Below are positions 704-21,383 of a DNA stretch of 27,937 bases, piece by piece. The position numbers and the translations under genes are program-made. The stretch's first letter is position 1. Every line of letters begins with the position of its first letter. The notes under the pieces were generated by a model, which was given only the letters and a program-made list of their open reading frames with translations, was not told the origin of the DNA and did not search any database. Source of the stretch: Spirogloea muscicola (taxonomy: Eukaryota > Streptophyta > Zygnematophyceae > Spirogloeales > Spirogloeaceae); the NCBI GenBank assembly GCA_009602725.1, contig WELB01000186.1, positions 199,216-227,152 of the forward strand. The letters run 5' to 3'.

Positions 704-1200
704 TTGAGTGGCGAGGGCTGTAGAAGCCAGGCCGAAAAGCATAAGGAAAAGGAAGCTCATCCAAGAAAGAAACAAAACCAAAACTTTTCAATAGAAGGCA
801 GGTGCTGTGAAAAGGTAGCCCGTAAGAAATTGAAAAGGTCCGAACGGGGTGGGAAGGAAGGACATTTCCAATTCAAGGCAATGGCTGTGGAGAGGCTAGC
901 CCAAAGAAGTGAGCCCAAAGAGATGTGCAAGATAGTTGCTCTGCCAAAGGGCGCAAGGGCTGTGAACAGCCAGCCTGAAGTGTACAAAGGGAGAAGGGCT
1001 CGCCCATAGAGGATAGAAGAGAGAAGGCGCGCGGGGCGCATGAAATGAAATGGAGGCCTATTCAAGCCGATACATTGATCAGGCAGAGTCTAGGGCAAAC
1101 TAAACAGGGCTACATAATACGGAGACCTAAACTAAGGTGCATGAGGTAAGAAGAGAGGATAGGGGCTGAAAAAAGCCAGCATAAAAACGACTGACGTAAG
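704..1200 (-). repeat. Minus-strand array of hairpin modules (LINE-tail type), interrupted by a SINE-like element
   Basis: Read on the minus strand, this stretch repeats a unit built as GGGCTGGCTNTTCACAGCCC, then a GCCC-rich stem and a pyrimidine tail. Clear copies lie near 705-735, 795-830, 870-910, 950-985 and 985-1016. The last is split: its second half (GGGGCTG..AGCC) resumes at 1163 after the inserted element at 1017-1153. No open reading frame in either strand looks coding. Confidence 0.6.
1017..1153 (-). mobile_element. SINE-like element with GC-rich tail, 137 bp, flanked by 9-bp target duplication
   Basis: The segment is flanked by the direct repeat AGAGGATAG (1008-1016 and 1154-1162) and splits a hairpin module whose two halves match uninterrupted modules elsewhere. 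In its own (minus) orientation it ends ATGCGCCCCGCGCGCC followed by TTCTCTCTT. Related copies are at 3523-3630, 11996-12095, 12967-13090 and 14990-15080. They share internal blocks such as CAATGTATYGGCTTGAAT. I see no protein-coding potential and no convincing tRNA-like promoter boxes, so its parent RNA is unknown. Confidence 0.72.
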
Positions 1201-2145
1201 AGAGAAGGTCTGGAAGGGCCGACAGGCACAAGAAGCATGAAACTATTCTTCTATGACTCCTAATACACTATTAGCGCTAATACACACAATCAAGTAAGTA
1301 CCACAAGGGATGGTCAGCTTTATCTGACTGGCCTTTCACAGCCCTCGCCCCTTTTGGATGAGCGTGGTTTTTTCACAGCCCTCAACCCTTGTTCACCCTC
1401 CATCTGGGCTGGCTTACTACAGCCATGTGGCCTGGTTGAGTGATGCCATGGTGCGTTAATGACATAGGCAGGGTTGCAGGCGATTGAGCGACGATCAAAA
1501 CAACCCATGGAGCGACGGTTTAGGATCTGTGGCACGCAGAGCATATACGATTCTGCCTGCCAAAAAAGCCCAGTTACCTATACCGGTCAATGTAGACCTG
1601 CCGGATCTTGGTCTCACGGCTTTCCGACTCCATTGGACCGTGTCCACCACTTTGTAGACTGGCTTGTCCCAGCAATTCCCCCATTTGAAGAGGCCCTTTT
1701 CTACCATTGGAAGAGCTGCTTCTCTTTCATGTGCTCATTCAGGTACTAGAGTCCCCTTCATTTTTTCTTAACTTTCTTATCTTAGTTCTTGTTAATTTTC
1801 TCCACACTTCATTTTACACACAAAGTGCTGGCTTGCTTGGCTTCCCTTTCAAACTTATGTGGACACCGCACCTTCTCTTCTGGCGCCCGGTCTATCTGGT
1901 GTCCGCGCCAGTGCCTTCTTGGCAAGGCGGGCAATGCCCAAATGAAGCCTGCTGGTGCAGCGGCCGCAGCTGCAGCACTGGTAAGTCTAGGTTGGATGTG
2001 TGAGAAATAGACTGGGCCGACTGGACTGCTCGGTCTGGCCTCCTCGCTCCTGGATGCTCGGTCACTGTTGAGGAAACACGGCTATTAGGTAAGCTGTATG
2101 TATACGCCACTATCTATACACTCCTGCATTTTCAGGCAGTTTTTG
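1200..2145. other. No gene seen; degraded repeat debris
   Basis: This stretch holds only weak copies of the hairpin module (near 1335-1440 and 1660-1740, plus orientation). A diverged relative of the SINE-like element lies near 1820-1895, sharing GGCTTGCTTGGC and CCCTTTCAAA blocks. Short ORFs on both strands have no recognisable domains and run through the repeats. Confidence 0.4.
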
Positions 2146-2241
2146 CAGGCAGACTGCGCTCTGGTTGCTGCTTCTGGGTTTCGCTGTGCTGATCCTTATT
2201 AAGCTGCAAGCTACTCTGACTTGCGGCTGCTGACTAGGAAT
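2146..2241 (+). mobile_element. LINE C-terminal remnant
   Basis: Translation in one frame gives ALVAASGF, a stop, then AASYSDLRLLTR. This corresponds to the conserved RALAAASG...SYSDLxLLTRGY end of the LINE family seen intact at 18520-18651. The terminal GY and stop are lost and an internal stop is present, so this is a dead fragment. Confidence 0.55.
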
Positions 2242-2324
2242 AATGGAGGACACACTTGTCGTGGCCACTTGCGTGTGGTGTGTGGTCTGTGTGGTCTAGC
2301 TGTGTGGTCTAGCCTTTCCAGCGA

Positions 2325-2640
2325 CTTCGGAGCATGTCCCCTTCATTCGGGCTGGCCTTTCACATCATTCGCCCCCTGAAAAATATATAAGAACTCCTGA
2401 AAGCCACCGCCTCATTCGGAGAACTTCCCTCTTTGGGCTGCGGCCTTTCCTAGCCATCCCCCTTTCGGGAAGAACCTGCTATCAGTTATCATATGTGGGC
2501 TGGCTTTGCACAGCCCTCGCTACGTTTGGAAGAGCTACTCCTTGGACCTTTGTCCATCTCTGGGCTAGCTTTTTCTTCTTCTTTATCACAGCCCTCGCCC
2601 TTTTGGGAGAGCCACTTTCTTTCTATGGCGGGCGTGGGAG
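2325..2640 (+). repeat. Plus-strand array of hairpin modules
   Basis: At least four diverged copies of the GGGCTGGCTTT...CACAGCCCTCGCC unit follow each other (about 2335-2380, 2420-2475, 2485-2545 and 2555-2632). Each is followed by a GGGAGAGCC-like stem and a pyrimidine run such as CACTTTCTTTCT. The spacing is irregular (60-90 bp), unlike a true tandem repeat. This fits repeated insertion of truncated tails. Confidence 0.55.
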
Positions 2641-3515: not shown

Positions 3516-3522
3516 CTATTTC

Positions 3523-3630
3523 AGGTCTCCATAATTTGTAGCCTTGTTTACTTTGCACTAGACTGCCTGAACAATGTATTGGCTTGAATTGGCCTCCCTT
3601 TCAATTTCATGCGCCCCGCGCGCCTTCTAT
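3523..3630 (+). mobile_element. SINE-like element, 108 bp, flanked by 7-bp target duplication
   Basis: The direct repeat CTATTTC flanks it (3516-3522 and 3631-3637). It is a plus-oriented relative of the 1017-1153 element: it begins AGGTCTCCATAAT, contains CAATGTATTGGCTTGAATTG and ends CATGCGCCCCGCGCGCCTTC. Its start agrees with the start of homology in the minus-strand copies, so it may be near full length. Confidence 0.72.
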
Positions 3631-3698
3631 CTATTTCCGAAGGAAATTTCGTGTCTTCTATTTCAGTAAGCGCTCAGTTCTTCAATTGTCGGCCTCTA

Positions 3699-3732
3699 GT
3701 TGGGCAAGCTCTCTTGCCCAACTTTCTTCTTG
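3699..3732 (+). repeat. Perfect 10-bp stem-loop followed by pyrimidine tail
   Basis: GTTGGGCAAG (3699-3708), loop CTCT, then CTTGCCCAAC (3713-3722) is followed immediately by TTTCTTCTT. The layout, a stem-loop abutting a CTT-rich run, matches the ends of the LINE and SINE-like units although the stem sequence differs. It may be the tail of a third element type. A rho-independent terminator is not expected in a nuclear genome. Confidence 0.45.
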
Positions 3733-4129
3733 ACGAAGGGCGCGAGTATTAAGAAAGACTCTACCGGTGAAGTGCGATGGCGGTGATTGGTCAGTCCAGA
3801 AAAAAGAAATGAGCTGCAGCGCGTCCACCGGGGGCGAGTGCTGTGGAAAAGCCAGCCCACAAAAGTGTAAACAAGGCCGGAGAATCGGGAAGGCTTATCC
3901 TACAGGGAGCAAAAGCAGAAAGACGAGAGGCTTCCAACGTCGGCAGGGGACGTGGGTGCACGCCGCCGCAGATCCGGCCCCGCGCCACATTCGCCTGGAA
4001 CCTACCGACGCGCGTGGGCACAGACAAGCTGCAGCCCGCCTGGAGGCTTTGCTACTCGCTTCATCTTGCTTCTTGGCTTCTCCAGTGCAGTCGCACCCGT
4101 CTCCACGGCACCCAAAAGCGACGGGCTGG

Positions 4130-4215
4130 TTCTGGAATGCGCCGCTGCCCCCGCCGCTACGTCACCTAATCCGCCCCCCTCAGTCCCGTCCCCGCCCCCG
4201 CCCCCCCTACATAAG
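4130..4215 (+). promoter_or_regulatory. Candidate heat-shock promoter of the small HSP gene
   Basis: TTCTGGAA at 4130-4137 matches the minimal heat shock element core (TTCnnGAA). A weak TATA-like TACATAAG lies at 4208-4215, about 105 bp before the start codon. The zone between is CCGCCCC-rich. Only one HSE core is seen and functional elements normally need three units, so this remains a candidate. Confidence 0.35.
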
Positions 4216-4318
4216 CAGCTCCCCTCGGCCTGCAGTCCTTACTCTGCGCCCGCCCCGCCCCCACTCCCCCGCGTCTACTCTGCCCCCACCCGCTGCCGTC
4301 GCCCTCGCCGCCTCCGCC

Positions 4319-5807
4319 ATGGCTGCCGCCACCGCCCTCATGTCCGCCTCCAGCGCCCTCGCTTCAGCACCGCTGCTGCGGCGGAGCCCTGCTGCCGGCT
4401 CGCCTGCCCCTCAGCACACATCCTCGCTGAGCCCTGCGCTTCAGCCCAGGAAGTCTGGCATCCTGGGCACTCGCCTCGATGGGCACACTCACGCAGCGCC
4501 TGCTGCCACCAGCAGCAAGGAGTGCATGCTGGTGAGCTTCTGAAGACCCTCACCTTGCTGTTGCATGCCTCTCGACACTGCTTTAGCTTGGCATGGTTTG
4601 GCCTCTGCACTGATACTTGATGCAACATACAGTAGATCGTCACATGGGCGAGCTTAAATACCTGTAAAAGCTGTGGTGAACTGAAGGGGATGCATGCCTT
4701 GACTTGTGCTACAGGTCGCCAGGGCTGGCTGCGGTGAATTTGATTCTCGTGGAGGTCGCACAACAGGCGGTGCCCGGTGGCAGCGCAGGCAAGATGGTGG
4801 CCCCAGCGATGCAGCTGGCCAGCCTCAGAGCGCGCGAAGGGGAATGCCCTCAAGATCCACATTCATGACCCCTTTTGGCCCGCTCAGTAAGTGCTTACTC
4901 TCATAAGTATGGTACATGCCTAAGTATCTGGGTCTTACCCAGGGGTGTTCACCAAAACGTACTGAGACGAAGGCAAGATTGCCTGCTCTATAAGGCGTTG
5001 ACGGACTTATGCTTGAATGCGCTGGATGCTGCGTCCTGCAGATGTGATGGCTGGGACTTGCAATCAGCCTGTAGGCTTCCGCGGATGGGGCATGCAGCCA
5101 CTTGGTCTGAACCAGCTCTTCAACGAGCTTTTCAACGACTTCTCTACGGTTGCGCCTCTTCGGCGGCCAGTCTGGAACGTTCAAGAGACCAGCAATGCTT
5201 ACCAAGTGCGCATGGAGCTGCCCGGCTTCTCCAAGGAGGAGGTGAAGGTCCAGCTTGAGGAAGGCAACATCCTTGTCATCCGAGCCCAGCGTCTTGATGG
5301 AGACAAGGATCCGAAGGGAGAACCTCAGGGCATGCGTCGAAGGGAAGGCTTTCAGGTTTGTACTGTCGGCCTGAGATCAGCAAGTCTAGTGGCAAGCAAG
5401 CTCCCAATGATAATTTAGCAGAAATTCTCTCCTTTGTATGCTCATTGAATTTATGCACTGCCATAGTTATCATGACCCGCTTGACCGAAGGAGCACACGG
5501 CTTGTAGGAAAACTCATCATTTGTTATTCTGTTTTGCCCCGCCTACCGACAGGCTCGCTTCCGTCTTGCGGACAATGTCACTGCTGAGAAGATTGGAGCA
5601 GAGATGAAGAATGGCGTACTGAACTTGACGTTCCCCAAGGTTGTGCAAGAGAAGGCATCAGCGGTGGACATCCAGGTCACAGAGCCAGAGTCCGAGGCTC
5701 AAGCCATTGACCTCCCTTCAGAAAGGGTGGACGAAGCCAACCACTCTGAGCAGAATAAGCCTGACCATGATAAGAGCCAAGACTCTGGCGAGGGTATCCC
5801 ATTGTAG
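4319..5807 (+). CDS. Small heat shock protein (HSP20/alpha-crystallin), probably plastid-targeted, 4 exons
   Basis: Model: exons 4319-4531, 4715-4886, 5042-5355 and 5553-5807, all with GT-AG introns and consistent phases (317 aa). Residues 1-128 are Ala/Ser/Arg-rich with few acids and begin MAAATALMSASSALASA, like a chloroplast transit peptide. The alpha-crystallin domain spans about 171-262, with VWNVQETSNAYQVRMELPGF, KEEVKVQLEEGNILVI and MKNGVLNLTFPKV. VDIQV (271-275) is the likely I/V-x-I/V tail motif that docks between subunits. In the family these are ATP-independent holdases that bind unfolding proteins; plant HSP21 protects thylakoids. FRLAD replaces the common FRLP. About 40 acidic, polar residues after VDIQV are longer than the usual tail. 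A cytosolic location is possible if the N-terminus is not a transit peptide. Confidence 0.92.
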
Positions 5808-6273
5808 ATGAGCTTGATTCATGAAATTATATTCATATAGATACGTTTTGACCTTTGCCAGTATGACACATTATTAGATATTAATTTTTCTGGCCTATCA
5901 CTCAATACCAGCAACAGAGTTCTGCTTGTTGACAGACCCTCTAATATAGGCCGAAACCTGGCTGTGTACTACCCTTTGACATGATATTAGCATTTTGACC
6001 AACCTGTCTGATTGCTGCCTTCGCAAAAGCAGCTGTGCCTATAGCCATTGCTAGGTGTTTGAAGTATGTCAGTCATTGTTTACCAACTAATGCTTGCTGT
6101 AAAAGTATATTGATGAGAAAGTGTTGAGAAGCGGATTTGCGTGGTTACATAACCTTTGGAATAGTGGCAAGAGACTTTTCTTTGAGAATTTGCAGACAGG
6201 ACGAATCCTCCATGAGCACAACGTGTATTGGTGCCTCACATTAAGAAAGTGTCTGGGAAATCTGCCTTTCCAT
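5808..6273 (+). terminator. 3' UTR and downstream region of the small HSP gene; TGTAA at 6098-6102
   Basis: No coding signal is seen. The stretch is more AT-rich than the gene. TGTAA, the usual chlorophyte polyadenylation signal, occurs at 6098-6102, about 290 nt after the stop, and may mark the transcript end. Confidence 0.35.
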
Positions 6274-6275
6274 GN

Positions 6276-6335
<60 letters not shown>

Positions 6336-6340
6336 GAGAG
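6276..6340. repeat. (GA)n microsatellite beside an ambiguous base
   Basis: A pure GA run extends from 6276 to 6332, then an imperfect run to about 6340. An N at 6275 sits at its left edge, so the true length is uncertain. Confidence 0.95.
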
Positions 6341-6462
6341 TGTAGCTTGCCTAGAGGACTTCTTTGCCTCTTCCCCGCCTCTGGTAAATAGCCTGTTCAT
6401 TTTGCTGCCTGGGCTTACGTTTCCGATTGAAAGGCTCAATCACGGAATTTCCATGCTGACAG

Positions 6463-7448
6463 ATGAGCAACCACTGGAGCATCTCCGGATTCTCCTTCAA
6501 GTGGGATGCTCGAGGCCAGGGTCGGCTCCTATCAATTTCGTCGACGGGAGCGTCTGAGAGGCTCCGCGGATTGCCATTGTATGCGGGCTTGCGGATGGGA
6601 AATGCTTTGTTATGCAATGCTCTGCACCGCCGTCTGGGCTTACCATCCCTGTGCTTGGCAGAAGTGACCTAGTGCGAGTGTGGGCTTATTGACAAGGATG
6701 CATTCCTCATGGGTGATCACATGCTCAGGTGTGCCAAAGGCAGCGAGCGCACGGGCTCCCACAACCTCCTATGTGACGAAAAATATGGCATCGAAAAGGA
6801 GGCGGGATATCAAGTGGCTCTATTGAGCACCGGGGTGATACTTGTTCAACTTCGCAAAGGGGTCCCTCAAACGAGGCGTGTCGATCTGGTGGGCGTCCCC
6901 TGGGAGGCGGCAGCGCCCCTCGTGGACGTAGTCCTCACTGACAGCTTGCCCAAGAAAGGGCCCCATTGCCTCTGAGGCCGGCTATGCTGTGAAGGTGGCC
7001 GAGCATGAGAAGTTACATAAATACAAGGACCAAACTGCTGGCGATACCTTATACCCGCTGGCCATAGACAAACACGGGTGATACGGTGGTCGGTGGTCCT
7101 CAGTACTTTGGCTGCTGGCCTCTCAAGCGCTTTCTCTGGCCCTTCTAACTTACTTCTTTCTTTTTCCTGGGCTGGCCATTCACAGCCGTCGCCCTCCACT
7201 GGAAGCGTCTTTCTTCTCAAGCTGACCAGCGGCGCCGCGAACGGGGTGCAGCACTTCCTGGAGGCTCGGTGCCTTTAGGTCTTTTGTCCTGCTACTGTAT
7301 GTGTGTATCTATATCCCTCCAGCGGTTCCAAGGGCTTTCTTTGCACCGCCGAGCCGGTCACGCCCTTGCAGCAGCCTCTGGCTTGTGCAGCGGGGTTGCT
7401 CTTCCTCCCTTCCAGCTCATCTGACTTCCTCCGCTTACACGTGGCACT
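6463..7448 (+). pseudogene. Decayed LINE ORF, C-terminal part with Cys/His motif (type C)
   Basis: This is the longest stretch of the LINE protein here. In order it shows RLGLPSLCLAEVT, an in-frame stop, then CEC...GDHMLRC and SHN (Cys-x-Cys, GDH, Cys, His). This motif pattern is found after the reverse transcriptase in several LINE-like polyproteins. Next come LVDVVLTDSLPKKGP, a frameshift, SEAGYAVKVAEHEKLHKYKD, TLYPLAIDKHG, another stop and YGGRWSSVLWLLAS. A foreign 86-bp insert follows at 7129-7214. The domain ends with ISLQRFQGLSLHRRAGHALA, SGV, PPFQLI, a stop and LPPLTRGT. At least three stops and one frameshift show it is dead. No catalytic YxDD box is visible upstream. Confidence 0.65.
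7129..7214 (+). mobile_element. Hairpin-module insertion inside the LINE coding region, 8-bp target duplication
   Basis: TCTCAAGC occurs at 7121-7128 and again at 7215-7222. The insert carries GGGCTGGCCATTCACAGCC, a CCACTGG stem remnant and the tail GCGTCTTTCT. Removing one repeat copy plus the insert rejoins the LINE coding homology on both sides. Confidence 0.7.
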
Positions 7449-7580
7449 AAGAGTGCCCTCTCTGCCTAGCTTGTGGCTCCGCTAATAGTCATGAACACCC
7501 TCTGTATGCACTTGGCTGGCTTTTTTGCAGCCACTCTTTTGATATCAGCAGCCGCATTCTTCTCTTTCACGGGAAGATGT
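7449..7580 (+). repeat. LINE type C 3' UTR, also present at 21384-21515 (-)
   Basis: The stretch shares GCCCTCTCTGCCTAGC, ATGAACACCC, TATGCA..TGGCTGGC, ATCAGCAGCCGCATTC and a terminal CACGGGAA with the minus-strand copy. In both, it follows directly after the LTRG/LTGGY end of the LINE protein, so it is best read as a UTR. Confidence 0.55.
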
Positions 7581-8481
7581 AAACAGATTAGAGGGGAATG
7601 TAGGCCTGGCTGCTAGCTTACAGACTGCGACTGCGATTGCATACCCTGCTTTTCTAGTGGTCATGACCTGAGGTTGCTGCAACAGGCATTGTATTATGCA
7701 GAGGCAAATAGATGCTGGCGCCATTGCAACGTGTGATGAAGAGGAAAGGGTTGGGGTCATCTTGACAAATAGCAGTGTAAAGGCACTGCAATAGTAAGTT
7801 GATCAACGCATGAAAGCAAGCCAACACAGAATGCTATGCATGTGCAAGAATTGTTTGGGAATAGGTAACTCTGGAGGAGCTATGTAATATGACAGTAAAT
7901 TACTACAACGTTGTGCATCCGTGAAAGGGATTGCCAACAGTGACTCTGAACAATCTTAACACCTTGCTTTCATCTTCGAAGCACACAATACGTGCAACAC
8001 TCACATTGACCATCAGGCATGGCCTGACGAAAAGTCACGTAAGGCACAATTAGGCCTCCGGCTGCATGCACTTCGTGCATTTGTAAATGAAGGCGGTAAA
8101 TCGCTGAAGTGTGGCATCCAACATGGAGGTCCACAGGCTGCCCCACAAAATCTGACAAATGCCAGGTCCCAGGTTTGCGAAGAAAGCAATACCAAAGGGA
8201 TGTGTTGCAGTCACGCACAGCAATAAAAGAGTAGCTTGGTGGAGGAGTGCAAGAGAGCCCGGAGGGCTAGTGACACATAAGGAAGCAATAGAACGTCGAT
8301 GAAGTTGGCAATGGATGACCAGATATGTAGTAGTGCTTGTTGTCCACCATTGAAGACAAAATCCATTTGAAGAGGTAGCCATGGTTTGCTTTGCATGCTT
8401 GCCATCACTTGGGAGAAGCAGAGGAGTAGCAGGAGACCGAGCATGGGGCAGCATGCTGCTGGAAGCAGTAGGTTCACAGCT
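7581..8481. other. Probable 3' UTR/intergenic region of the bHLH gene; no other gene recognised
   Basis: Overlapping minus-strand ORFs (for example 8050-8454) are in conflicting frames and carry no known motif. TTACA at 7618-7622, which is TGTAA on the minus strand, could be a distant polyadenylation signal for the bHLH gene, but at about 860 nt from the stop this is weak. Confidence 0.35.
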
Positions 8482-10667
8482 TCAGGTAGAGATAGCGCGG
8501 AGATGGCCGGAGAACTGAGAGACTGGTAGCAGGCAAAGGCCACGACTTTGGAGGTTCTTCTGAAGCCTGCCCTCTGTGAAGATGGTCATGGCCGTCTCTG
8601 ACAGCGGCGATTTGCAGTAGGGCGACGAAGTGGCGGCAGCGGCTGCAGCTTTTGCGGCCAGCCTGTTTGCCTCCTTGATGCGTTTTCTGAGCTTGTATTT
8701 GGCAGCATGGTATCCACGTGCATTCTCTGGAGGGAGGCACGACTCAATCTGAGCCAGGTTGGCATCGATAAGATGTCCCCACTGATTGTCACCGGTCGAC
8801 TCTTTCCTCTTGTGGCTGATCGTATAGATGGGCTCCAGATCCACCAATCTCTGATCTGGGCGTGGTGTAGCAGGACTGCTGCGGATACTTGAGTCCTGCA
8901 AAAGGCGTGATCCGGAGGTTGGTCATGTTGTCCCGTTGATGACCATCGCAAGAAGGAAACTCGTGCCCTTATCAGGTAAAACTACACATTGCATCACAGG
9001 CGGTGCTGAGGCTAAACAGCTAGTGAGGTGGACATACGCGCACACAGTTGCCCATGCAATTGCTTCATGATAGGCTCCTTACCTGAGAAGAGGCGGATGA
9101 CGCAGCGCATCCCTCGGCCTCCGCAATCAGTCCACTCAAGGTCTGCATGTAGTTTCACGTGCTTGATGACATGAGGACCAAAGAGGTTATGTGACAGGTG
9201 GCATCTCAATTGAGTCAAACGTACCAGCATGCTAAATCCAAACAAAGCTCTACATCAAGGTTCTAAGATTATTGAATGACCATGCATTAATTAGTGACGA
9301 TCACCTGTATCTGGCCCTGCAAGTCTCTCACGTACTCAATAACCTCGCCCAGCATGTTGGCAGTATCACCCTGAGTAGCCACGTGAGAGAACACACGTAA
9401 GAAGGGGTGACAAGGACTCGTCAATGTGCACAGCTATCAAGCAAGCAAAGACAACAGTGTCAATATCCGAAGTGTACGTGTGACGGCCACTGAGGTATTA
9501 CCTTATTCGTGTGCGGGACAAGGTCCTGCAGATCTCGCATCCTTGTATTCATTTCCCGCCTGCGCTCACGTGCCGTGCTAGCGGCGATGCTCATGACATA
9601 GTCTCGCTTGCGGCCAGAAGGGGACACCTTGCTGGCTGCAGGCCTTGGCCTCTGCTTGCCCTGCAAGCACAACAACCTCGTGACTGAGTGAGTTGCAGAT
9701 ACAAGCTTGGAACTGCATCTTGTCAATTTTTGAGCACAGCAGGATTGTGGGTCATGGCGAGAGTGCCTACCTCAGTGGCACTGCCTGGTTCACTGCAACA
9801 GCCCCCCAAATTACGTGGTGCCAAGTCGTTGCCAGTGGTGTCGATGGAGGACGCAATGCTCTCGGAGCGTCGCATCGCAGCGTCGTCAAGGTCGTCCACG
9901 ATGGCGACTGTGTAGGGGCCTGTCTCTGTAAGCAGGCTGGAGCTCATCATGGTGCCGCAAATGCCGCCCATGTGGTCATCTTCAGGGATGCCAATGTCTG
10001 ACGCACCCCCGTTGTCAGCGAGAAGGTCGTGTGGAGCCAGTACGCGCTGCACGGGCCAAGCGGCTGAGACTACTGAGCTGCAGAGGCTCATGTCATCCTC
10101 CTCGGCCAAGCCCAGCCGAGCAGGCCAGGAGGCTGCAAACGCCGAGGCCGGCACTTGATTGCCAAAGTAGGGCTGGCCTTGCAGCGCCTGCTGTGGGCTC
10201 GGCGTCTCTGTGGAGGCCGATGATGCGGCGAGGTCGACGCAGGAGAGCCCTGGGAGGACAGCCCGCAGGTCGTGGCCGTGCAGTGCTGGCAGAGCTGCGC
10301 AGACGGGGCTCAGGGTCGCCGCTCGAGAGCACCCGAGGGCGTCGAGGAGAAGGTGCTGTGGGGGGTGGTAGTGCTGCAGGAGGAGTTGCTCCTGCTGGGC
10401 GTGCCACGGCAGCATGGTGGGTGCGGAAGGCCCGCAGCCCTCGCCGGGTTGCATGTGCAGGAGCTCCATGGTGAAGCCGCCACCTGCCAAGACGGCAGCA
10501 GAGCGCCGGCTGCGGGAGCGCCGCCATGGTGGGCTCAGTGTGCCGCCGGAGAGAGCGCAGGCAGCGAGATCGGGCAGCAGGTGCAGGCTTGCGGGAGGCG
10601 GGGGCCCAGGAGCGGGCAATGCAGGTCCTGCGAGGCCACAGGATGCAAGGAGGCCCGTGGCCGTCAC
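8482..10667 (-). CDS. bHLH transcription factor, 5 exons
   Basis: Minus-strand exons 10667-9771, 9660-9502, 9370-9305, 9142-9083 and 8895-8482 join in phase 0 at every GT-AG junction (531 aa). The basic region and helix 1 are in exon 2 (SIAASTARERRREMNTRMRD, LQDLVPHTNK). Helix 2 is in exon 3 (GDTANMLGEVIEYVRDLQ), giving a domain at about residues 316-374. The ARERRRE basic stretch and LVPxTNK loop resemble plant bHLH group XI (LRL/UNE12-like); that subgroup is an inference. The family dimerises and binds E-box DNA in the nucleus. The rest is low-complexity: exon 1 is Ala/Pro/Leu/Gln-rich with an acidic AEEDD stretch, and exon 5 has a basic KYKLRKRIKEANRLAAKAAA segment. The start could instead be a downstream Met such as MELLHMQ. 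Exon 4 was chosen over a longer ORF nearby because only it keeps phase. Confidence 0.85.
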
Positions 10668-11595: not shown

Positions 11596-11599
11596 GAGA

Positions 11600-11663
11600 A
11601 GATGTGATGAGCTCCCTTCGGGAGAGCCACTTTCTCTTCTAGAGGGGGCGAGCGCTGTGAAAG
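11600..11663 (-). repeat. Hairpin module, left part, split by insertion
   Basis: GGGGGCGAGCGCTGTGAAAG ends at 11663 and its continuation CTAGCCCGAAGAGTTGACAA starts at 11829. Together they form one normal minus-oriented module. The upstream CTTCGGGAGAGCCACTTTCT is the tail of another, plus-oriented module. Confidence 0.6.
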
Positions 11664-11818
11664 AAGAAAGTGCTCGCCCATTGAGAATAGGGGCTGGAAC
11701 AACCAGCCCGAAAAAGAATGAACAGAGTACGAGAAGGGGGCCAGGGGAAGCGCTAAGTAACAGAAACAAAGCTGCTACGAGACACTCAGTAACTCCTGCT
11801 AAGCAGCCACAGATCAGA
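11664..11818 (-). mobile_element. 5'-truncated LINE (type A) tail, 155 bp, flanked by 10-bp target duplication
   Basis: GCTGTGAAAG flanks the insert exactly (11654-11663 and 11819-11828). In minus orientation it contains the end of the LINE protein region (CTGCTTAGCAGGAGTTACTG), the UTR, GGGCTGGTTGTTCCAGCCCC, GGGCGAGCAC and the tail TTTCTT. It sits inside a hairpin module, so an older tail was hit by a younger one. Confidence 0.8.
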
Positions 11819-11828
11819 GCTGTGAAAG

Positions 11829-12750
11829 CTAGCCCGAAGAGTTGACAAGGTCTGAAGCGGGCCGACAAGCGCTGAAAGGTCGGGACACGAGAGGCTCGAC
11901 AGCAGCGACTGGCTCCATCTCGGGGAAAGAAGTCCTTTGGTGCCCAGCCGAGTAGTGAGCTCTTCCTCTCACAGCCACTGCTGTCAAATGGAGGAAGGCG
12001 CGCGGTGCGCATGAAATTGAAAGGGAGGCTTATTCAAGCCAATACATTGTTCAAAGCAGAGGCTAGTGCAAACTAAACAAGGCTACATGATGTGGAGAAA
12101 ATTGGAAGAGCTATTTCTACAGAGGGCAAGGGCTCTGAGAGGCCTACCCGAAGAGAATTGAAAAGGTTTTAAGGGGGCGGGGGCGTTCAAGTCAAGTAGA
12201 CTCATCCAAAGGGGGCGAGGGCTGTGAAAACCCAGCCCAGAAACAATGGACAAGGTTTGAAGGGCCGAAAGTTGCTATACTCCGAAAGTCTTTTTTCAAT
12301 AGAAGAAAAACTAGCTCTTCCAGTGGACGGCAATGGCTGTGAGAGGCCAGCCCCGAGGATATAAGATGGCTGTGAAATAGAAAGAAGGAAAACGGAAAGG
12401 CCAGCCCATTCTCGCTGTCCTGGGGCTTCTCCCCTGCTCCGCCGCTGCGTCGATGCTGCTACTTGATGCTTGCCTCTCGCTGGGCTAGTCACAGGCACAA
12501 CCTTTATGGAGGAGCTTACTGCCTTTCTGGCGGGCCGACGAGCAAGATCAGACCTGGCTCAGTTACCCTCATTGATACCACCTTGATGCTGGAGTCAGCC
12601 AAGACACAAGAATTAAGCTCTTCCAAAAAGCTCTTCCAAAGGGGGCGAGGGCTGTGGAAAGCCACCCAGAAGAAATGGAAAGGGAGTAAGCTTGCCTGCT
12701 TGGATGCACTCAATAGCTGCCGTCAGCTTCCTGAATGCACAGATAGCGCC
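11829..12750 (-). repeat. Minus-strand hairpin-module array with one SINE-like copy
   Basis: Modules of the GGGCGAGGGCTGTGAAAANCC type recur near 12125-12150, 12205-12240, 12325-12355 and 12637-12672. A copy of the SINE-like element lies at about 11996-12095 (GCGCGCGGTGCGCATGAAAT, then AATACATTGTTC). No gene is supported. The 150-codon plus-strand ORF at 12463-12915 runs across repeats. Confidence 0.55.
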
Positions 12751-12755
12751 GTAGA

Positions 12756-12959
12756 AGAAAGGGCTCGCCCATTGAGGATAGGGGATGGACAAGCCAGCCC
12801 AAAAAAGAATGAACAAAGAACGAGAAGGGGGCCAGAGGAAGCCAGAGGAAGCGCTAAGAAACCTAAGCACACAAAGAAAGAAAGCAGCTACAAATCACTC
12901 AGTAACCCCTGCTAAGCAGCCGCAAATCAGAGAGGCTAGGGTCCTGGAAGTGGGTCCCA
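12756..12959 (-). mobile_element. 5'-truncated LINE (type A) tail, 204 bp, flanked by 7-bp target duplication
   Basis: CCGTAGA occurs at 12749-12755 and 12960-12966. In minus orientation the insert starts GGGACCCACTTCCAGGACCC, reads SLSDLRLLSRGY and a stop, then the standard UTR, GGGCTGGCTTGTCCATCCCC, GGGCGAGCCC and TTTCT. It abuts the SINE-like element at 12967. Confidence 0.78.
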
Positions 12960-12966
12960 CCGTAGA

Positions 12967-13095
12967 GAGAAGGCGCGCGGGGCGCATGAATTGAAAGGGA
13001 GGCCAATTCAAGCCAATACATTGTTCAGGCAGAGTCGAGTGCAGACTAAACAATGCTACATAATACGGAGACCTAATCTAAGGTACCTAAGATGA
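12967..13095 (-). mobile_element. SINE-like element copy
   Basis: In minus orientation it runs from about TCTTAGGTACCTTAG through GTCTCCGTATTATGTAGC, CAATGTATTGGCTTGAATTG and GCGCCCCGCGCGCCTTCTC. It is very similar to 1017-1153 and 3523-3630. Its tail directly borders the LINE tail insertion above. Confidence 0.65.
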
Positions 13096-13099
13096 CATT

Positions 13100-13235
13100 A
13101 GTACCCACGGGTGAGCACAAACAAATCTGACAAGCTAACTTGGGGAGCTGGAGCGCCGCCACGAAAGCCGGAGGCCTGACTTAGAGCACGCCCTGCACGT
13201 TGATGAAGAGCCAATGCTTGCGAGCGCACCGTAGA
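13100..13235 (-). mobile_element. LINE C-terminal fragment
   Basis: The minus strand reads VRSQALALHQRAGRALSQAS, then VSLSDLFVLTRGY and a stop, matching the LRAGRAL...SDLxLLTRGY end of the family. It is interrupted on its 5' side by the small insertion at 13236-13308. Confidence 0.6.
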
Positions 13236-13308
13236 AGAAAGAAGAAGAAGGGCTCGCCCATTGAGGATAGGGGCTGGACAAGCCAGCCCAGAAAAGAATG
13301 AACAAACC
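13236..13308 (-). mobile_element. Solo hairpin tail, 73 bp, flanked by 9-bp target duplication
   Basis: CACCGTAGA lies at 13227-13235 and 13309-13317. The insert is only the LINE tail: TTCATTCTTTTCTGGGCTGG, CCAGCCCC, GGGCGAGCCC and an expanded tail CTTCTTCTTCTTTCT. It interrupts LINE-derived coding sequence. Confidence 0.78.
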
Positions 13309-13317
13309 CACCGTAGA

Positions 13318-14297
13318 CGACTCCGGGATACTTCGCGCGTTCGTTCAGCAAACATGACGGCCGGCGGGCGAAACCCCGGGGGAGTATCACTTGCCTCATT
13401 AGGGAACTTTTCCAGGAGAAAAGAGCTGGTACCTCATTGACCGGCCCACAAACCCTCCCCTCTCCCGCGTATAAAAGTAAGGCTCTTCCTTATATGGCGA
13501 GGGCTGTGAAAGCGAGCCCGAAAAAGTATGACAAGGTTCGCGGGAGCCGGCCGGCGGTCTCCGCGCAGCAAAAATGATAAGAAAGCAGCTCCTGTAAGTT
13601 GACAGTTATGGCCCCTTGACGTCTGAAGCAGGATAGACTTTCCTCCAAGGCAGGTGGCTGCAGAGGGGCCACAAGATCAGACGACAGGAGCAACTCGCAA
13701 CTCTACTCAAGGCAAGTCTCTGATAAAGCCAGGCTCTGACAAAAAAGAAATGCTCTGACAAGTAGCAAGAAGTGTCATGGCCATTAGGGAGCAATCGGGT
13801 ATGAGTCGTATAAGGGCCGTTAATCAGCAAGGTTGCCCGCCCATGAAAAATTTCGTGTATTTGGGCCCATGGGGGGTTCGAGAAGCTGCCCTGTAGAAGT
13901 TACGAAAGAAGGAAAGAAGCTCTTCAAAAAAGAAGAAGGCTCGCCCATAGAGAAAGAGGGGCTGGCAAAGCCAGCCCAAAAAGAATGGACAATGTCCAAA
14001 GCCGAAGAATGAGATGCCGAGGATGGACTCCTCTACTCCTCTACTCCTCAAAAGGGCGTTGCCTGCATTCGCGAGCCCAAGCAAATGGAGTAGGGGTAGT
14101 GGACATCCCACAACCACTAGCTGGCAAGCGCACTCCGAACACGTAAAAATCGCAATGGGTCAAATAACGACGTAACAGTTTGCAAAGTTGCATCTCGACC
14201 ACTGACGGGACTGGGTAGGACACCTGCGCCCCCCCAAAGTGGGGGTTGCGTAGAAGCCCCCAGGCCTGCTTGGCTGGCGGGCGGCGGCTGGGCGGCA
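13318..14297. repeat. Scattered minus-oriented hairpin modules; no gene
   Basis: Modules lie near 13490-13530 (GGCGAGGGCTGTGAAAGCGA) and 13935-13990 (GGGGCTGGCAAAGCCAGCCC). Between them lies unrecognised sequence with several short overlapping ORFs and no motif. Nothing supports an RNA gene. Confidence 0.45.
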
Positions 14298-14303
14298 AGC
14301 GGA

Positions 14304-14490
14304 AGAAAGGGCTCGCCCATTGAGAATAGGGGCTGGAATAACCAGCCCGAAAAAGAATGAACAGAGTACGAGAAGGGGGCCAGGGGAAGCGCTAAGTAAC
14401 AGAAACAAAGCTGCTACGAGACACTCAGTAACCCCTGCTAAGCAGCCGCAGATCAGAGATGCTGGGCTCCTGGAAGTGGGTCCCCTGGCC
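14304..14490 (-). mobile_element. 5'-truncated LINE (type A) tail, 187 bp, flanked by 6-bp target duplication
   Basis: AGCGGA occurs at 14298-14303 and 14491-14496. The insert is nearly identical over its 3' part to that at 11664-11818, including GAATAGGGGCTGG and GCGCTAAGTAACAGAAAC read on the plus strand. This suggests a shared recent source copy. Confidence 0.65.
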
Positions 14491-14639
14491 AGCGGAGCGC
14501 CGCGGGCCCGTACGAGTGGTTCACGTCGCCGCGGGCGGCACGCAAACGCGGGTTATGGGCGCCCACATAACTCCATCAAGCAAGACCCATGTATATGGGT
14601 CTTCCTTGGTTGAGCGCCTTGGGATGTAGGTTTCACCAA

Positions 14640-14885
14640 AAGAAAGAAAGAAAGGGCTCGCCCATTGAGGATAGGGGCTGGACAAGCCAGCCCAAAAAAG
14701 AATGAACAAAGAACGAGAAGGGGGCCAGAGGAAGCCAGAGGAAGCGCTAAGAAACCAAAGCACACAAAGAAAGAAAGCAGCTACAAATTACTCAGTAACC
14801 CCTGCTAAGCAGCCGCAAATCAGAGAGGCTAGGGTCCTGGAAGTGGGTCCCCTGGACAGAGCCAGAGGCAGCAGCGAGGGCTGCT
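14640..14885 (-). mobile_element. 5'-truncated LINE (type A) tail, about 240 bp
   Basis: In minus orientation it begins GAGGGCT's complement in the LRAGRALAAASGS region. It continues with SGSVQGTHFQDPSLSDLRLLSRGY-type sequence (split here by the length limit of what is quoted), the UTR, the stem-loop and an extended (CTTT)n tail. It is very similar to 12756-12959, including the duplicated GCCAGAGGAA block. No clear target duplication was found. Confidence 0.65.
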
Positions 14886-14989
14886 TAGTGAAGACGACGA
14901 AAAACGGGCTCTCTCGGAACCAACAATGTGCTCTACACGAAGATTATGGTGGCTGAAGAGAAGGCCGCCCCAAAGGTGGGAGAGAAGGC

Positions 14990-15080
14990 GCGCGGTGCGC
15001 ACGAAAAGAAGATTGGCCCATGCAAGCCGAAACAATGTACAGCCAAAAGCTAGTGCCAGAAGTGGGGCTACATGAGAAGA
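14990..15080 (-). mobile_element. Diverged SINE-like element copy
   Basis: GAGAAGGCGCGCGGTGCGCA marks its tail read on the plus strand, followed by diverged internal blocks (CATGCAAGCCGAAACAATGT, GGGGCTACATGAGAAG). It is less conserved than the other copies. Confidence 0.5.
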
Positions 15081-15248
15081 AAATCTCGTGTATTTGAAAC
15101 AAATGAAGGCCAAATGGCCAAGTACAACGGCAAGCACATCTGAAGACCTATATGAGAGTGATGTGGTGAGTAGAGAGAGCAACCGGAGATTAATAGAAGA
15201 GCATAGAGCGCATCGGTTTCGAGGTTCCGTACCGTGTTGTCAGCACGA

Positions 15249-16322
15249 ATGACGGACAGACTGGCAAGCAGGGGAAAGAGCTGCCAGTCGGCAGGTGAGG
15301 ACGAGGGGCTTCACGAAAGCGCACCGAGAAGAGCGCCCCCAATCGCGCTGCCGCGGGCCTGTCAGGCGCGCGAGGGGGGCGGGCCCGCCCGCGCCCGCCC
15401 CCCTGCTGGGGGCAGGTGGCCCTCAGCCGCGTCCCGCCTCGACCGCCGTACCGCAGCGAACCTCGCTCCGGTACAGCGCTCGGCCTCGCCGCCCACAGGC
15501 GTGCGCACGTATGTGCCAGCCCCACACTCGCTGCCCCGCCCGTGCCCTTGCCAGCTGCCCTCGGGCTTCCCCCCGCACTACTGTAGCGCGTCTACTGCGG
15601 ATGCTGGCGACTCCTTGGCCCTGCTCATCCGCTCAACCACCTCTCACCGCCGAGCGCCGGGCCACTCGTTGGCCACCCAGCAAGTCTTGGTTGCCTCCAA
15701 TCATCTCACCCCTTCACGGTAGGCGCGCAACCTTCCGTTGGACTGGTCGTGCCAGGCATGTCGTCACGGCACAGGCCCAGCAGGCCACGTTCCTCCAACC
15801 AAAGCAGCCATGATTGTCTCCCTGTGTGGCTGCCTCTGTACTCCAGGCGCGAAAGATATATAACCGCACAAATTTCACCTAAGACAGATACGTTGTCCTT
15901 TAGAGGTAGCGTGTTGTGTACCAGAAGAGGGGCACTGAGACGGGCATTGCAGTGTACTTGTAGCCCGCCCCCAAAATCTGCACACATGTTTTCAGTGTCA
16001 ATGGAGGAGCATCAATGAAGGGTAAGGCAGGTAGAGTGCCCAGTGGCTTTGTTTACTACCTGAGCTCCTCCAAGTTGAAGAGATGCCGAATCAAGTGACA
16101 GCAACTCCCAACCCTTTACCTTCACGTGGCTCAGATTCAGGAGTGAAGAAGCTTGCATTCAGTCTCTTTGAGCACGACTTGTTGGGAAAATTTCGGCGAC
16201 AACGTGCTCAGCAGCGGGAGGTGGCACAGCGGCATACAAATCTCTGGGTAGAGCGTGAGCTTGCTCATGCCGTCATATCCTGCCCTTTCCTGGTAATCGA
16301 GTTGACTCTGGAGGATTTCTAA
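15249..16322 (+). CDS. Candidate three-exon gene of unknown function (weak model)
   Basis: The model joins 15249-15718, 15847-15905 and 16102-16322 (249 aa); all junctions are GT-AG and the phases fit. Exon 1 is Arg/Ala/Ser-rich (MTDRLASRGKSCQSAGEDEG at its start, ALLIRSTTSHRRAPGH near its end) and could hold a transit peptide. Exon 3 encodes a charged, helix-prone segment including GVKKLAFSLFEHDLLGKFRR and QREVAQRHTNLWVERELAHA. I do not recognise the family. TGTAA at 16481-16485, about 160 nt after the stop, fits a chlorophyte transcript end. The GC-rich first exon could be random open frame. A simpler alternative is a 79-codon ORF starting at 16083. The segmental duplication begins 41 bp after the stop. 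Confidence 0.3.
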
Positions 16323-17083
16323 GACTTGATTGAATTTTGCTTAGCATGTGGGGCGTGCCATCTTTAGACGAGGCGTTTACATTCATGTTGATACGCTTTC
16401 ATTCACATTGATTTGACTCTATGCCGTGAGAAGTGGTCGATAGTGGCAAAGCATGCATCAGGTAGCCTAGCTTTTCTGCATGTAATCATCTGTCACTGCA
16501 GAATTGCCTGAGCATTGAGACATGTGTAGAGCTGTCCACTTTAACACGTCAGTGCACCCTCTGACGGATGCAGAAGACCAACCATCCTCCACGTTGTGGT
16601 TAATGACCTGTCAACATGACTTACACGTGCACTTTGTTGGTCGTCATGTTGGTTTACTCCTAGAGCAGCTCAGCAGGCTCCACACGTTTCTGCACAGCTA
16701 TGAGCATACACAACAGCAGATGAGTACTGCGAGTCCATAGCACCAACTGCAAGTTGACCACTGCTGCGAGATTGCTGCAGTGCCGTGCTAGAGGTGAAAA
16801 CACTGAGAAAACCACCACATTGGTTGAGCCCCTGCGCCGACGGAAGGCGGGAGCTGCAAGCACCTCACAGCACGCTGCGCTCATTGGAAGCGCAGCCGTC
16901 AAGCTAGTTTGTGGTGGCCGCCGTGAGCAAGGCATTTGAGGAGCAACTTCTGTCGAGGTCAAGCCGCACTTGCAGCATGAGTGAGATTCGCTGAGGCTCA
17001 GCCGCGGGACTGCCGGCCCCCGCCGCGGCGTCGGCAGTGGCAGCAGCTGCGGGGAGGCTTGCGGTCCATACCCGCCCTAAACC

Positions 17084-17178
17084 CGCCCTGTTCATTCTTG
17101 ATGTTCATTCTTGTTGTTCATTCTTTTTTGGGCTGGTTTATCCAGCCCCTATCCTCAATTAGCGAGCCCTTCTCTTCT
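17084..17178 (+). mobile_element. Solo hairpin tail in copy A, 95 bp, flanked by 8-bp target duplication
   Basis: CCTAAACC lies at 17076-17083 and 17179-17186. Copy B has an empty site here (CCCTAATGTTGAGCCC near 20132). The insert has three TTCATTCTT-like units, then GGGCTGGTTTATCCAGCCCC and AGCGAGCCCTTCTCTTCT. Confidence 0.78.
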
Positions 17179-17313
17179 CCTAAACCTTGAGCCCTGACTG
17201 ACCCCCGCGGGCTTCAGAATGAGCAGCCTTTCCAGCTGTAGTCTCTTGCATAGCTGTGTGCTCTTGGCGCCTTTCGACCCTTCGAACCCATGTTTTCTGG
17301 GCTGCCTTTTCAA

Positions 17314-17425
17314 GTGGTAGATTTCTTTTCTTGGCACCGTTTTGTGGCCTTTGGATATTGTCCAGTCTTTTCTGGGCTGGCTTTGCTAGCCCCTCTTTTA
17401 ATATGGGCGAGCAATTTCATTTTAA
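17314..17425 (+). mobile_element. Hairpin tail present in copy A, absent from copy B
   Basis: Copy B reads straight through TGCCTTTTCAAGGCCC at about 20261-20276. Copy A carries 112 bp between CAA and GGCCC, containing GGGCTGGCTTTGCTAGCCCC and GGGCGAGCAATTTCATTTT. The flanking repeat is short (AA), so the exact ends are uncertain. Confidence 0.6.
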
Positions 17426-19290: not shown

Positions 19291-19416
19291 GACTTTCCTG
19301 CAGCAGGGTCGCTGGCGCAATTGTATCGCATGCGCCTGGCCGTCTCGCTGCAGCGGTCGATGGCCCGTGCGCTGCACCTTCGTGCCGGCCGGGCTCTTGC
19401 TGCTGCCTCTGGCTCT
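19291..19416 (+). mobile_element. LINE (type A) fragment broken at an N
   Basis: FLQQGR/FPAAGSLAQLYRMRLAV-type sequence and LRAGRALAAASGS match 18718-18845 almost base for base. It stops at the N at 19417, where copy B of the duplication begins. A true 3' end is missing, so this junction may be an assembly artefact. Confidence 0.6.
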
Positions 19417-19417
19417 N

Positions 19418-20663
19418 GTTAGACGGAGGCATTTGCGTCCATGGTGATACGCTTTCATGCACATTGACTTGACTTTATGCCGTGAGAAGTGGTCAATAGT
19501 GGCAAAGCATGCATCAGGTAGCCAAGCTTTTCTGCATGTAATCATCTGTCACTGCAGAATTGCCTGAGCATTGGGGCATGTGAAGAGCTGTCCACTTTTC
19601 TTCGTCAATGCATCTTCCGACGGATGCACAAGACCAACCATGCTCTACGTCGTGGTTAATGACCTCTCAACATGACTTACACTTTTCAATTTTGTTGGTC
19701 GTCATGTTGGTTTACTCCTAGAGCAGCTCAGCAGGCTCCACACGTTTCTGCACAGGTATGAGCATACACAACAGCAGATGAATACTGCGAGTCCATAGCA
19801 CCAACTGCAAGTGGACCACTGCTGCAAAGTTGCTGCAATGCCGTGCTAGAGGTAAAAACACTGAGAAAACCCCACATTGGTTGAGCCCCTGCGCCGACGG
19901 AAGGCGGGAGCTGCAAGCACAGCACGCCGCGCTCATTGGAAGCGCAGCCGTCAAGCTGGTGTGGTGGTGGCCGCCGTGAGCAAGGCATTGAGGAGCAACG
20001 TCTGTCGAGGTCAAGTCGCACTTGCAGCATGAGTGAGTTTCGCTGCGGCTCAGCCGCGGGACTGCCGGCCCCCGCCGCAGGCGTCGGCAATGGCGGCAGC
20101 TGCGGGGAGGCTGCGGCTGTCCTTACCCGCCCTAATGTTGAGCCCTGACTGACCCCCGCGGGCTTTCCAGAATGAGCAGCCTTCCCAGCTGTAGTCTCTT
20201 GCATAGCTGTGTGCTCTTGGCGCCTTTTGGCCCTGTGGACCTTGTCCAAAGTGACTGGGCTGCCTTTTCAAGGCCCACGCTCTCGTTTGGGAAGGAGAAG
20301 TGAGCTCTTACACAGAAGAGATTTGACTTCCCACAGCGGGTAGGGGCTGCGGGAGGCCAGCCCAGAAAGAATGGACAAGGTCCAAAGAGCCAAGAAGGTG
20401 CCGAAAAGAAAACCACACAGCTAGACACTACACGACCGCAGAGGGAAGCTCAGTAACCACGAGTGAGCAGCAACAAGTCCGAGTAAGCCGCAGCTGGGAG
20501 AAAGCCACTCCGGCGACACCAGAGGCAGCAGCCATAGCGCGGCCTTCTCGCGAGTGGACTGCGTGAGCCAGGGAGTGCGGGAGAGAGACGGAGAGCCGCA
20601 TGCGGAAGAGGTCGAGGCTGTGGAAGAAGTGGCTCTCCCAAAGAAAGAGAAAATGACGCCTTC
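19418..20663. repeat. Segmental duplication, copy B
   Basis: It matches copy A (16363-18180) from TTAGACGGAGGC to the minus LINE type B remnant near 20446-20640 (LLTRGY stop codon complement at about 20449). It lacks the four insertions carried by A, so it shows the empty-site state. Small indels shift all ORFs relative to A. Confidence 0.7.
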
Positions 20664-21383
20664 AGGAGAAGAAAGAAAGTGCTCGCCCATAGAGAGAGAA
20701 GGCGCGCGGGGCGCATGAATAGAGAAGAGGGGCTGGCAAAGCCAGCCCAAAAAGAATGAACACTGTCCAAAACCAAAGAAAGGTGCCGAAAGAGGACTAC
20801 ACTACCAACCACGACAAAACACAAGACGATGCAGAGGGAAGCTCAGTACCGGCGCGGAGAAGTGGCACTCCCAATGGGGGCAAGTGCTGCGAAAAGCCAG
20901 CCCGAAAAGAATTGACAAAGGTTCGGAGGGGCCTACAAGTGTTTAGCAGCTACAAAGGGGCTTAAAGATGCTATGTCAGAACAGAGATAAAGAAACAAAG
21001 AACTGAAGAAAGACACTTCCAGGTGAGGGCGGTGGCTGGGAGAGCCCAGAGAAAAAGTGCGAAGGGGCCGGAAAAGAAGGGAGGAAAGGACGCTTCCAGG
21101 AGAGGAAGAAAGCGCGGCCAGATTGACTGGTGGCTGGGAAAGGCCAGCCCAAGGAGAGGGCAGTGGCTGTGAGAGGCCAGCCCGCGGAAAAGAAGGATTC
21201 CAAGTCTGAAGAAAGTGGCCCTCCCGACGGGGGCAAGGGCTGTGAAAAGCCAGCCCGAGAAGGATTGACAAAGGTTCTGACAGGGGGCCAGAGAAAGCGG
21301 TAAAGCACAGGGGGGCCAGGGGCAGCCCGCGAAGAGTTGACAAGGTCCGAAGGGGCCAAAAGCGCTGTGAAAAAGCCAGCGCA
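20664..21383 (-). repeat. Dense minus-strand hairpin-module array
   Basis: At least seven modules in one orientation occur near 20675-20755, 20865-20910, 21015-21065, 21110-21150, 21155-21190, 21210-21260 and 21355-21390. They share GGGCAAGTGCTGCGAAAAGC-like stems and GAATTGACAAAGGTTC spacers. Phase and spacing vary, unlike a simple tandem array. Confidence 0.6.
20696..20718 (-). mobile_element. 23-bp remnant of the SINE-like element, flanked by 7-bp target duplication
   Basis: ATAGAGA occurs at 20689-20695 and 20719-20725. The insert (GAGAAGGCGCGCGGGGCGCA and three more bases) is only the last part of the SINE-like 3' end. It splits a hairpin module that is otherwise continuous (CGCCCATAGAGAAGAGGGGC). 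Confidence 0.75.

What the first reader, a model, noticed from the sequence alone, without database searches (positions are those of the whole stretch)
1008..20725. Nine short retroelement insertions with visible target-site duplications, many nested
Direct repeats of 6-10 bp flank inserts at 1017-1153 (AGAGGATAG), 3523-3630 (CTATTTC), 7129-7214 (TCTCAAGC), 11664-11818 (GCTGTGAAAG), 12756-12959 (CCGTAGA), 13236-13308 (CACCGTAGA), 14304-14490 (AGCGGA), 17084-17178 (CCTAAACC) and 20696-20718 (ATAGAGA). Each insert ends in one of two recognisable 3' ends, and several sit inside older copies of the same units. This points to repeated target-primed insertion with strong 5' truncation, so the apparent module arrays are layered tails and not tandem repeats.
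Basis: partly seen in the sequence, partly recalled or inferred. Interest (0 to 1): 0.78.

Follow-up and report, generated by a model that had tools for sequence, protein, structure and literature searches.

The report
Serial, severely truncated LINE tail insertions
A genome that looks algal is peppered with very short copies of the tail ends of self-copying DNA elements, and related stretches of the same genome still show six of the nine reported sites without the inserts, three inserts having used the same spot.

Summary
The finding holds. All nine direct repeats are exact. The inserts are 3' ends of LINEs; family B has an open frame of 1350 codons whose reverse transcriptase matches, among solved proteins, R2 proteins only. 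The two main 3' ends occur 1735 and 1304 times exactly, 0 times reversed. In 80 sampled copies the 3' end is common and the 5' end varies: medians 133.5 (B) and 136.5 nt (A), 13 of 80 at most 40 nt. Repeats of 7 nt or more flank 21 of 74 usable copies, versus a permuted mean of 1.97, maximum 8; 53 show none. Contigs C6 and C24 hold unoccupied counterparts of six of the nine sites (3-8), with one, sometimes diverged, target copy. Corrections: site 3 has a third 3' end; by eye there are at least five. Nested, 5'-truncated LINE arrays are known from algal Zepp; the R2-like protein, dispersed sites, brevity and nick reuse differ.

The parts
1..590 (+). Family B LINE copy running off the left end of the window; holds the C-terminal coding part and the 3' UTR
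   Evidence: 85% identity to L002 element positions 3610-4176
1008..1162 (-). Site 1: family A insert 1017-1153 with TSD AGAGGATAG, inside an older B 3' end
   Evidence: the host B unit continues on both sides, read by eye
3516..3637 (+). Site 2: family A insert 3523-3630 with TSD CTATTTC
7121..7222 (+). Site 3: insert 7129-7214 with a third (C-type) 3' end, TSD TCTCAAGC; unoccupied at C6:819790, where the target has diverged
11654..11828 (-). Site 4: family B insert 11664-11818, TSD GCTGTGAAAG, inside an older C-type unit; unoccupied in C6 near 824380-824391
11983..12110 (-). Family A fragment absent from C6 at the colinear place; no clean TSD
12749..12966 (-). Site 5: family B insert 12756-12959 with TSD CCGTAGA; read as the first of three insertions at one nick
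12958..13235 (-). Missed insertion: family A copy 12967-13226, TSD CACCGTAGA on both sides
   Evidence: 99.6% identity to the L047 element over 12964-13227; repeat positions
13227..13317 (-). Site 6: family B insert 13236-13308 with TSD CACCGTAGA; same nick again
   Evidence: the whole chain 12749-13310 is one 562-bp indel against C6:825680
13928..14049 (-). D-type insertion absent from C6 (122 bp, imperfect 5-6 nt repeat)
14298..14496 (-). Site 7: family B insert 14304-14490 with TSD AGCGGA; unoccupied at C6:826747
14643..14947 (-). Family B insertion (about 235 nt match the element) absent from C6; no clean TSD
17076..17186 (+). Site 8: family B insert 17084-17178 with TSD CCTAAACC; unoccupied at C24:1055809 and in the window's own second copy near 20131, with a diverged target
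20689..20725 (-). Site 9: 23-nt family A 3' end (20696-20718) with TSD ATAGAGA, inside a D-type 3' end
   Evidence: the host D unit continues on both sides, read by eye
6497..7120 (+). Older, decayed LINE C-terminal region next to site 3
   Evidence: 62% identity to a family A copy over 6497-6812; the rest read by eye

Best explanation
The inserts are 5'-truncated copies of related autonomous LINE families. Family B encodes one long protein with an R2-like reverse transcriptase and a C-terminal Cys/His-plus-acidic region that looks like a restriction-like endonuclease; long family A copies encode a related C-terminus; the proteins of the C, D and E types were not examined. Shown: common 3' end, variable 5' end, TSDs in a minority, unoccupied counterparts, nesting, protein-coding copies. 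Inferred: the protein nicks one strand, the pyrimidine-rich RNA tail (CTTTCTTC- or CTTCTCTC-like) is primed at the nick, reverse transcription usually stops within about 150 nt and sometimes within 40, and the second cut some 6-13 nt away gives the TSD. Because many targets lie in older LINE ends, tails pile up. At 12749-13317 a B copy entered first. Its 5' junction reads CA before CCGTAGA; both later TSDs contain that CA while the empty allele has CG (GCGCCGTAGA) there, so an A copy and a second B copy came later at the same nick.
For: Exact TSDs. 1735 and 1304 exact 3' ends, 0 in reversed controls. Shared 3' and variable 5' ends in 80 sampled copies. TSD of 7 nt or more in 21 of 74 versus permuted mean 1.97, maximum 8. 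Uninterrupted 1350-codon frame in L002 with RVT_1 at E 8.4e-16; R2 proteins are the only RT matches in the PDB, best E 7.2e-7. Long family A copies encode a related C-terminus. Unoccupied counterparts in C6, C24 and the window itself. Of 21 indels of 40 nt or more between window and paralogues, not chosen by 3' end, 14 are mostly A/B-related LINE sequence, and 10 of these 14 hold a known 3'-end motif. Insertions occur on both sides: C6 has its own 119-bp insert with TSD GAGCAGAA.
Against: 53 of 74 usable copies have no flanking repeat of 7 nt or more and 46 of 74 none of 6; permuted flanks alone give 7.0 at 6 nt. Several paralogue-defined inserts (11983, 14643, C6:825027) have no clean TSD. 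The endonuclease region has no sequence match to R2 in the PDB, and its Cys/His spacing differs from the published RLE-LINE knuckle. NCBIfam gives a weak group II intron RT match far below its cut-off (20.9 of 300 bits), so RT similarity alone does not fix the clade.
Confidence: 0.93

Rival explanations
1. Part of the shortest copies are filler DNA: LINE RNA or cDNA captured at chromosome breaks during repair, not target-primed insertion.
For: 53 of 74 sampled copies lack a TSD of 7 nt or more; several paralogue-defined inserts have no clean TSD.
Against: Among 14 LINE-derived indels found by paralogue comparison, not by 3' end, 10 hold a known 3'-end motif; filler should be cut at random on both sides. 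The 80-copy sample cannot speak to this, since it was chosen by an intact 3' end.
Confidence: 0.2
2. The short units are SINEs, non-autonomous elements that borrow the LINE 3' end.
For: Median lengths near 135 nt.
Against: No tRNA and no Rfam match at E up to 1 in the window; 5' ends vary instead of stopping at a common head; longer copies run on into the coding region.
Confidence: 0.04
3. The module arrays are tandem or segmental duplications of the same units.
For: The region does hold a duplicated block, 16370-17314 and 19414-20270.
Against: TRF finds no array of these units; units are absent from the paralogue one by one; different families alternate.
Confidence: 0.02

Closest known systems
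Zepp / Zepp-like LINEs of green algae (Coccomyxa, Chlamydomonas)
   Same: Nested insertions into older copies and arrays made mostly of 3' ends through frequent 5' truncation (PMC8226300 passages; nesting also in PMC3446292 passages)
   Different: Zepp is an L1-type LINE and forms one cluster per chromosome in Coccomyxa; here the RT resembles R2, no endonuclease family is matched in Pfam, and matches are listed on many contigs
R2 and other restriction-like-endonuclease LINEs (R2, NeSL/Utopia)
   Same: Single long frame, N-terminal finger-like Cys/His motifs, R2-like RT, C-terminal Cys/His motif followed by conserved acidic residues
   Different: That group is described as mostly or generally site-specific (PMC4640811 and PMC5678591 passages); here flanks and TSDs are diverse. 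The knuckle spacing is CX1CX12HX3C, not CX2-3CX7-8HX4C
Dualen LINEs of Chlamydomonas and relatives
   Same: LINEs of green algae (PMC8226300 passage)
   Different: Dualen encodes two endonucleases (the passage in PMC4640811 is cut after 'both'; the rest is recalled); no APE-type family is matched in Pfam in the L002 frame

Membership tests
LINE / non-LTR retrotransposon (TPRT) | Encodes a reverse transcriptase, no LTR | tested here: met
   RVT_1 E 8.4e-16 in L002; copies share a 3' end only; LTRs were not searched for separately
LINE / non-LTR retrotransposon (TPRT) | Common 3' end, variable 5' truncation, TSD | tested here: met
   TSD in a minority of copies; unoccupied sites
Restriction-like-endonuclease LINE (R2 group) | R2-like RT in a single ORF | tested here: met
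   R2 proteins are the only RT matches in the PDB, E 7.2e-7 to 1.1e-6; one 1350-codon frame
Restriction-like-endonuclease LINE (R2 group) | N-terminal zinc finger / Myb | tested here: inconclusive
   C2H2 matches only below Pfam's cut-offs; Myb not tested apart from that scan
Restriction-like-endonuclease LINE (R2 group) | CCHC knuckle with spacing CX2-3CX7-8HX4C | tested here: not met
   Conserved C, C, H, C at spacing CX1CX12HX3C in four sequences, one of them a decayed remnant read by eye, against the spacing in PMC5678591
Restriction-like-endonuclease LINE (R2 group) | PD-(D/E)XK-type endonuclease fold | tested here: inconclusive
   Invariant R-x-D and D-V-V residues in four sequences, but no R2 match in the PDB for the region alone or as a profile; no fold was made
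Restriction-like-endonuclease LINE (R2 group) | Insertion at one specific repeat target | tested here: not met
   Flanks and TSDs of sampled copies are diverse
Zepp-like LINE | L1-type (APE) element | tested here: not met
   No APE-type match in the Pfam scan of the L002 frame; L1 phylogeny not tested
SINE | Small-RNA-derived head at a common 5' end | tested here: not met
   No tRNA or Rfam match in the window; no common 5' end in the sample

The most novel reading that the evidence does not exclude
An R2-like LINE lineage has lost its fixed target and inserts where a pyrimidine-rich RNA tail can prime; the duplicated target keeps the nick usable, so families insert one after another at the same base (three times at 12749-13317). 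With reverse transcription that mostly stops within about 150 nt, the lineage builds self-targeted arrays of its own ends.
Probability: 0.3. Interest if true: 0.6.

Novelty: new variant of a known kind. Interest (0 to 1): 0.45.

Why it matters
RLE-type LINEs are described as mostly site-specific, and how a LINE trades a fixed target for dispersed insertion is open. Here one genome offers occupied and unoccupied versions of many insertions in paralogous blocks, copies down to the 20-odd nt that the search pattern can see, and one nick used three times with at least the first insertion in order. That makes the stopping point of reverse transcription, the second cut and target reuse measurable from sequence alone.

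Tried and rejected
A tRNA- or Rfam-derived SINE head: none found in the window. Tandem-repeat origin: rejected (unoccupied sites). The long 'open frames' (up to 5873 aa): the one I read in L001 runs through assembly gaps of N, while L002 has no N. Endonuclease identity by sequence: the C-terminal region alone and a four-row profile found no R2 match in the PDB, only one weak unrelated chain each. A pyrimidine-start preference of the target: 16 of 21 sampled TSDs start with two pyrimidines, but so do 44 of 69 chance matches, so the sample shows no preference beyond the matching method; the 10 of 10 in the window (8 of 8 loci) are not free of that bias. Tail-to-start adjacency: 7 of 76 sampled copies begin within 30 nt of another 3' end, versus 0.6% of random control points and 1.5% in the same neighbourhoods, but some of the seven are loose motif matches, so I do not rely on it. 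Junction-spanning paralogues in the sample: 8 of 76 found; I drop L076 (it overlaps its neighbour L038 in the genome) and L015 and L081 (positive gaps), leaving five with an overlap of 6-8 nt. The match to random control loci (16 of 21 indels) is no negative control, since those loci hold LINE pieces themselves. Indels containing N were left out of the list of 41 indels of 15 nt or more. Some 5' limits rest on a single other copy and may be off.
Full report
Observation. The nine repeat pairs are at the stated coordinates, letter for letter. The window is G000:C186:199216-227152 in a 153,112,186-base assembly of 471 contigs. My impression that it is a green alga is recalled, not tested.

What the inserts are. 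In the sense direction most end in CCAGCCCCTATCCTCAATGGGCGAGCCC-like sequence plus a TTTCTTC-like tail (family B) or ATGCGCCCCGCGCGCCTTCT plus CTCT (family A). These exact ends occur 1735 and 1304 times, and 0 times for the reversed patterns. An exact D-type end occurs 98 times, 0 reversed. Family B runs into a coding region whose L002 copy has an uninterrupted frame of 1350 codons without N. It holds RVT_1 (E 8.4e-16). Of eight PDB sequences listed at E up to 10, three are R2 retrotransposon proteins matched at the RT (E 7.2e-7, 1.1e-6, 1.1e-6); the other five are weak (best E 0.83) and unrelated to an RT. NCBIfam lists one family, group II intron RT, far below cut-off. Family A copies L047 and L059 encode a related C-terminus ending ...LTRGY followed by the 3' UTR. 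Four C-termini share C, C, H, C, then E-R, H, R-x-D and D-V-V residues.

Genome-wide test. From the 100 listed places of each 3' end (the list is cut there and lies on contigs C1-C6) I took 40 each, in steps of two and three. Measured from the 5' limit of homology to the end of the 3' core, family A has median 136.5 and family B 133.5 nt; 13 of 80 are 40 nt or shorter, 60 of 80 are 200 nt or shorter, and 4 of 80 reach the 1000-nt limit of the fetched piece. Sampling by an exact 20- or 28-mer cannot see copies that lack it. Six of 80 were unusable for the TSD test. Of 74, 28 have a repeat of at least 6 nt, 21 of at least 7, 14 of at least 8, 10 of at least 9; permuting the downstream flanks within family gives means of 7.0, 1.97, 0.87 and 0.32, with maxima 17, 8, 6 and 4 in 2000 runs. 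So TSDs are real, but most copies show none.

Nesting. Flanks of 150 nt upstream (74 copies) and 138 nt downstream (80 copies) are covered 38.7% and 37.4% by the window's LINE-rich segments plus the L002 element; random pieces of the same contigs are covered 5.0% (35,075 non-N bases; 5 of 20 random pieces were all N). Upstream values may be inflated by 5' limits called too short, and regional clustering is not separated from targeting. In five copies (L008, L016, L033, L066, L082) both flanks align next to each other on another sequence with an overlap of 6-8 nt, as a TSD predicts.

Occupied and unoccupied sites. A joined-flank search found the empty chain site at C6:825621-825764. C6:815-838 kb proved colinear with window 3918-17083 and 21529-27249, with gaps; between them the matches are not simply colinear. 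Over the three aligned C6 segments identity is 89.2, 88.0 and 89.4%. Against C6, site 3 (94 bp including one TSD copy, TCTCAAGC), the chain (562 bp, CCGTAGA) and site 7 (193 bp, AGCGGA) come out of the alignment as exact insert-plus-TSD differences; at site 3 the C6 target itself has diverged (TCTCAGATT). Site 4 is absent too, and C6 reads GGGCTGTGAAAAGCC once. Site 8 is unoccupied in C24 and in the window's second copy of the block, both reading CCCTAATGTTGAG where the occupied copy has the CCTAAACC target. C6 has insertions of its own, for example 119 bp with TSD GAGCAGAA and 65 bp with TACT. Of 21 indels of at least 40 nt in the five aligned segments (three with C6, two with C24; indels with N left out), 14 are covered at least 40% by A/B element sequence and 17 by the sampled loci with flanks. 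Of the 14, 10 hold one of the 3'-end motifs.

One nick, three insertions. CCGTAGA stands at 12749 and CACCGTAGA at 12958, 13227 and 13309. Between them lie B 12756-12959, A 12967-13226 (99.6% identical to the L047 element over 12964-13227) and B 13236-13308. C6 has GCGCCGTAGACGACTCC once. The CA in the later TSDs is not in the empty allele; it stands at the 5' junction of the first B copy, so that copy came first. Whether A or the second B came next cannot be told. All three are in the same orientation. Template jumping on RNA would not place target copies between the units.

Mechanism. Shown: fixed 3' end, variable 5' end, TSD in a significant minority, unoccupied alleles, nesting, coding copies. 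Inferred: target-primed reverse transcription that usually stops early. Not shown: the endonuclease type, since the C-terminal region had no R2 match in the PDB alone or as a profile; and any target motif, since the pyrimidine start is matched by the chance control.

Known relatives. Passages of PMC8226300 and PMC3446292 describe Zepp as nested and, in the former, as arrays mostly of 3' ends through 5' truncation; so nested truncated LINE arrays in algae are already in print. Passages of PMC4640811 and PMC5678591 describe RLE LINEs as mostly or generally site-specific. My searches for short or nested LINE insertions and algal LINEs listed no paper that I recognised as reporting this lineage; I saw only listings, and passages of four papers, so absence from print is not established.

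Noticed in passing
window 3918-27249 and C6:815885-838000; C24:1053618-1058500: Paralogous blocks (88-98% identity) that align along most of the window, suggesting a duplicated, hybrid or very heterozygous genome.
   Followed up: partly
window 19417: A single N joins a block (19414-20270) that repeats 16370-17314; the right part is 97.6% identical to C24 and 15188-17314 is 91.4%, so this may be an assembly join of two homologous copies rather than a true tandem duplication.
   Followed up: partly
window 13733-13751: GCTCTGACAA stands on both sides of only 9 nt (AAAAGAAAT), absent from C6; it could be a tail-only insertion or a slippage event.
   Followed up: no
window 17089-17125: The 5' part of the site 8 insert is a 13-nt unit (TGTTCATTCTTGA) repeated 2.8 times, perhaps made while the cDNA was copied.
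   Followed up: no
C6:825521-825565 and window 15067-15147: A further short repeat type (TTTGAAACAAA...GGCCAAAT) differs between paralogues, with a 7-nt repeat CAAAAGG in C6; not an A or B element.
   Followed up: no
L001 (C33:182600-188500): This LINE locus holds 3791 N, so its reported open frame of 1356 aa runs through a gap.
   Followed up: no
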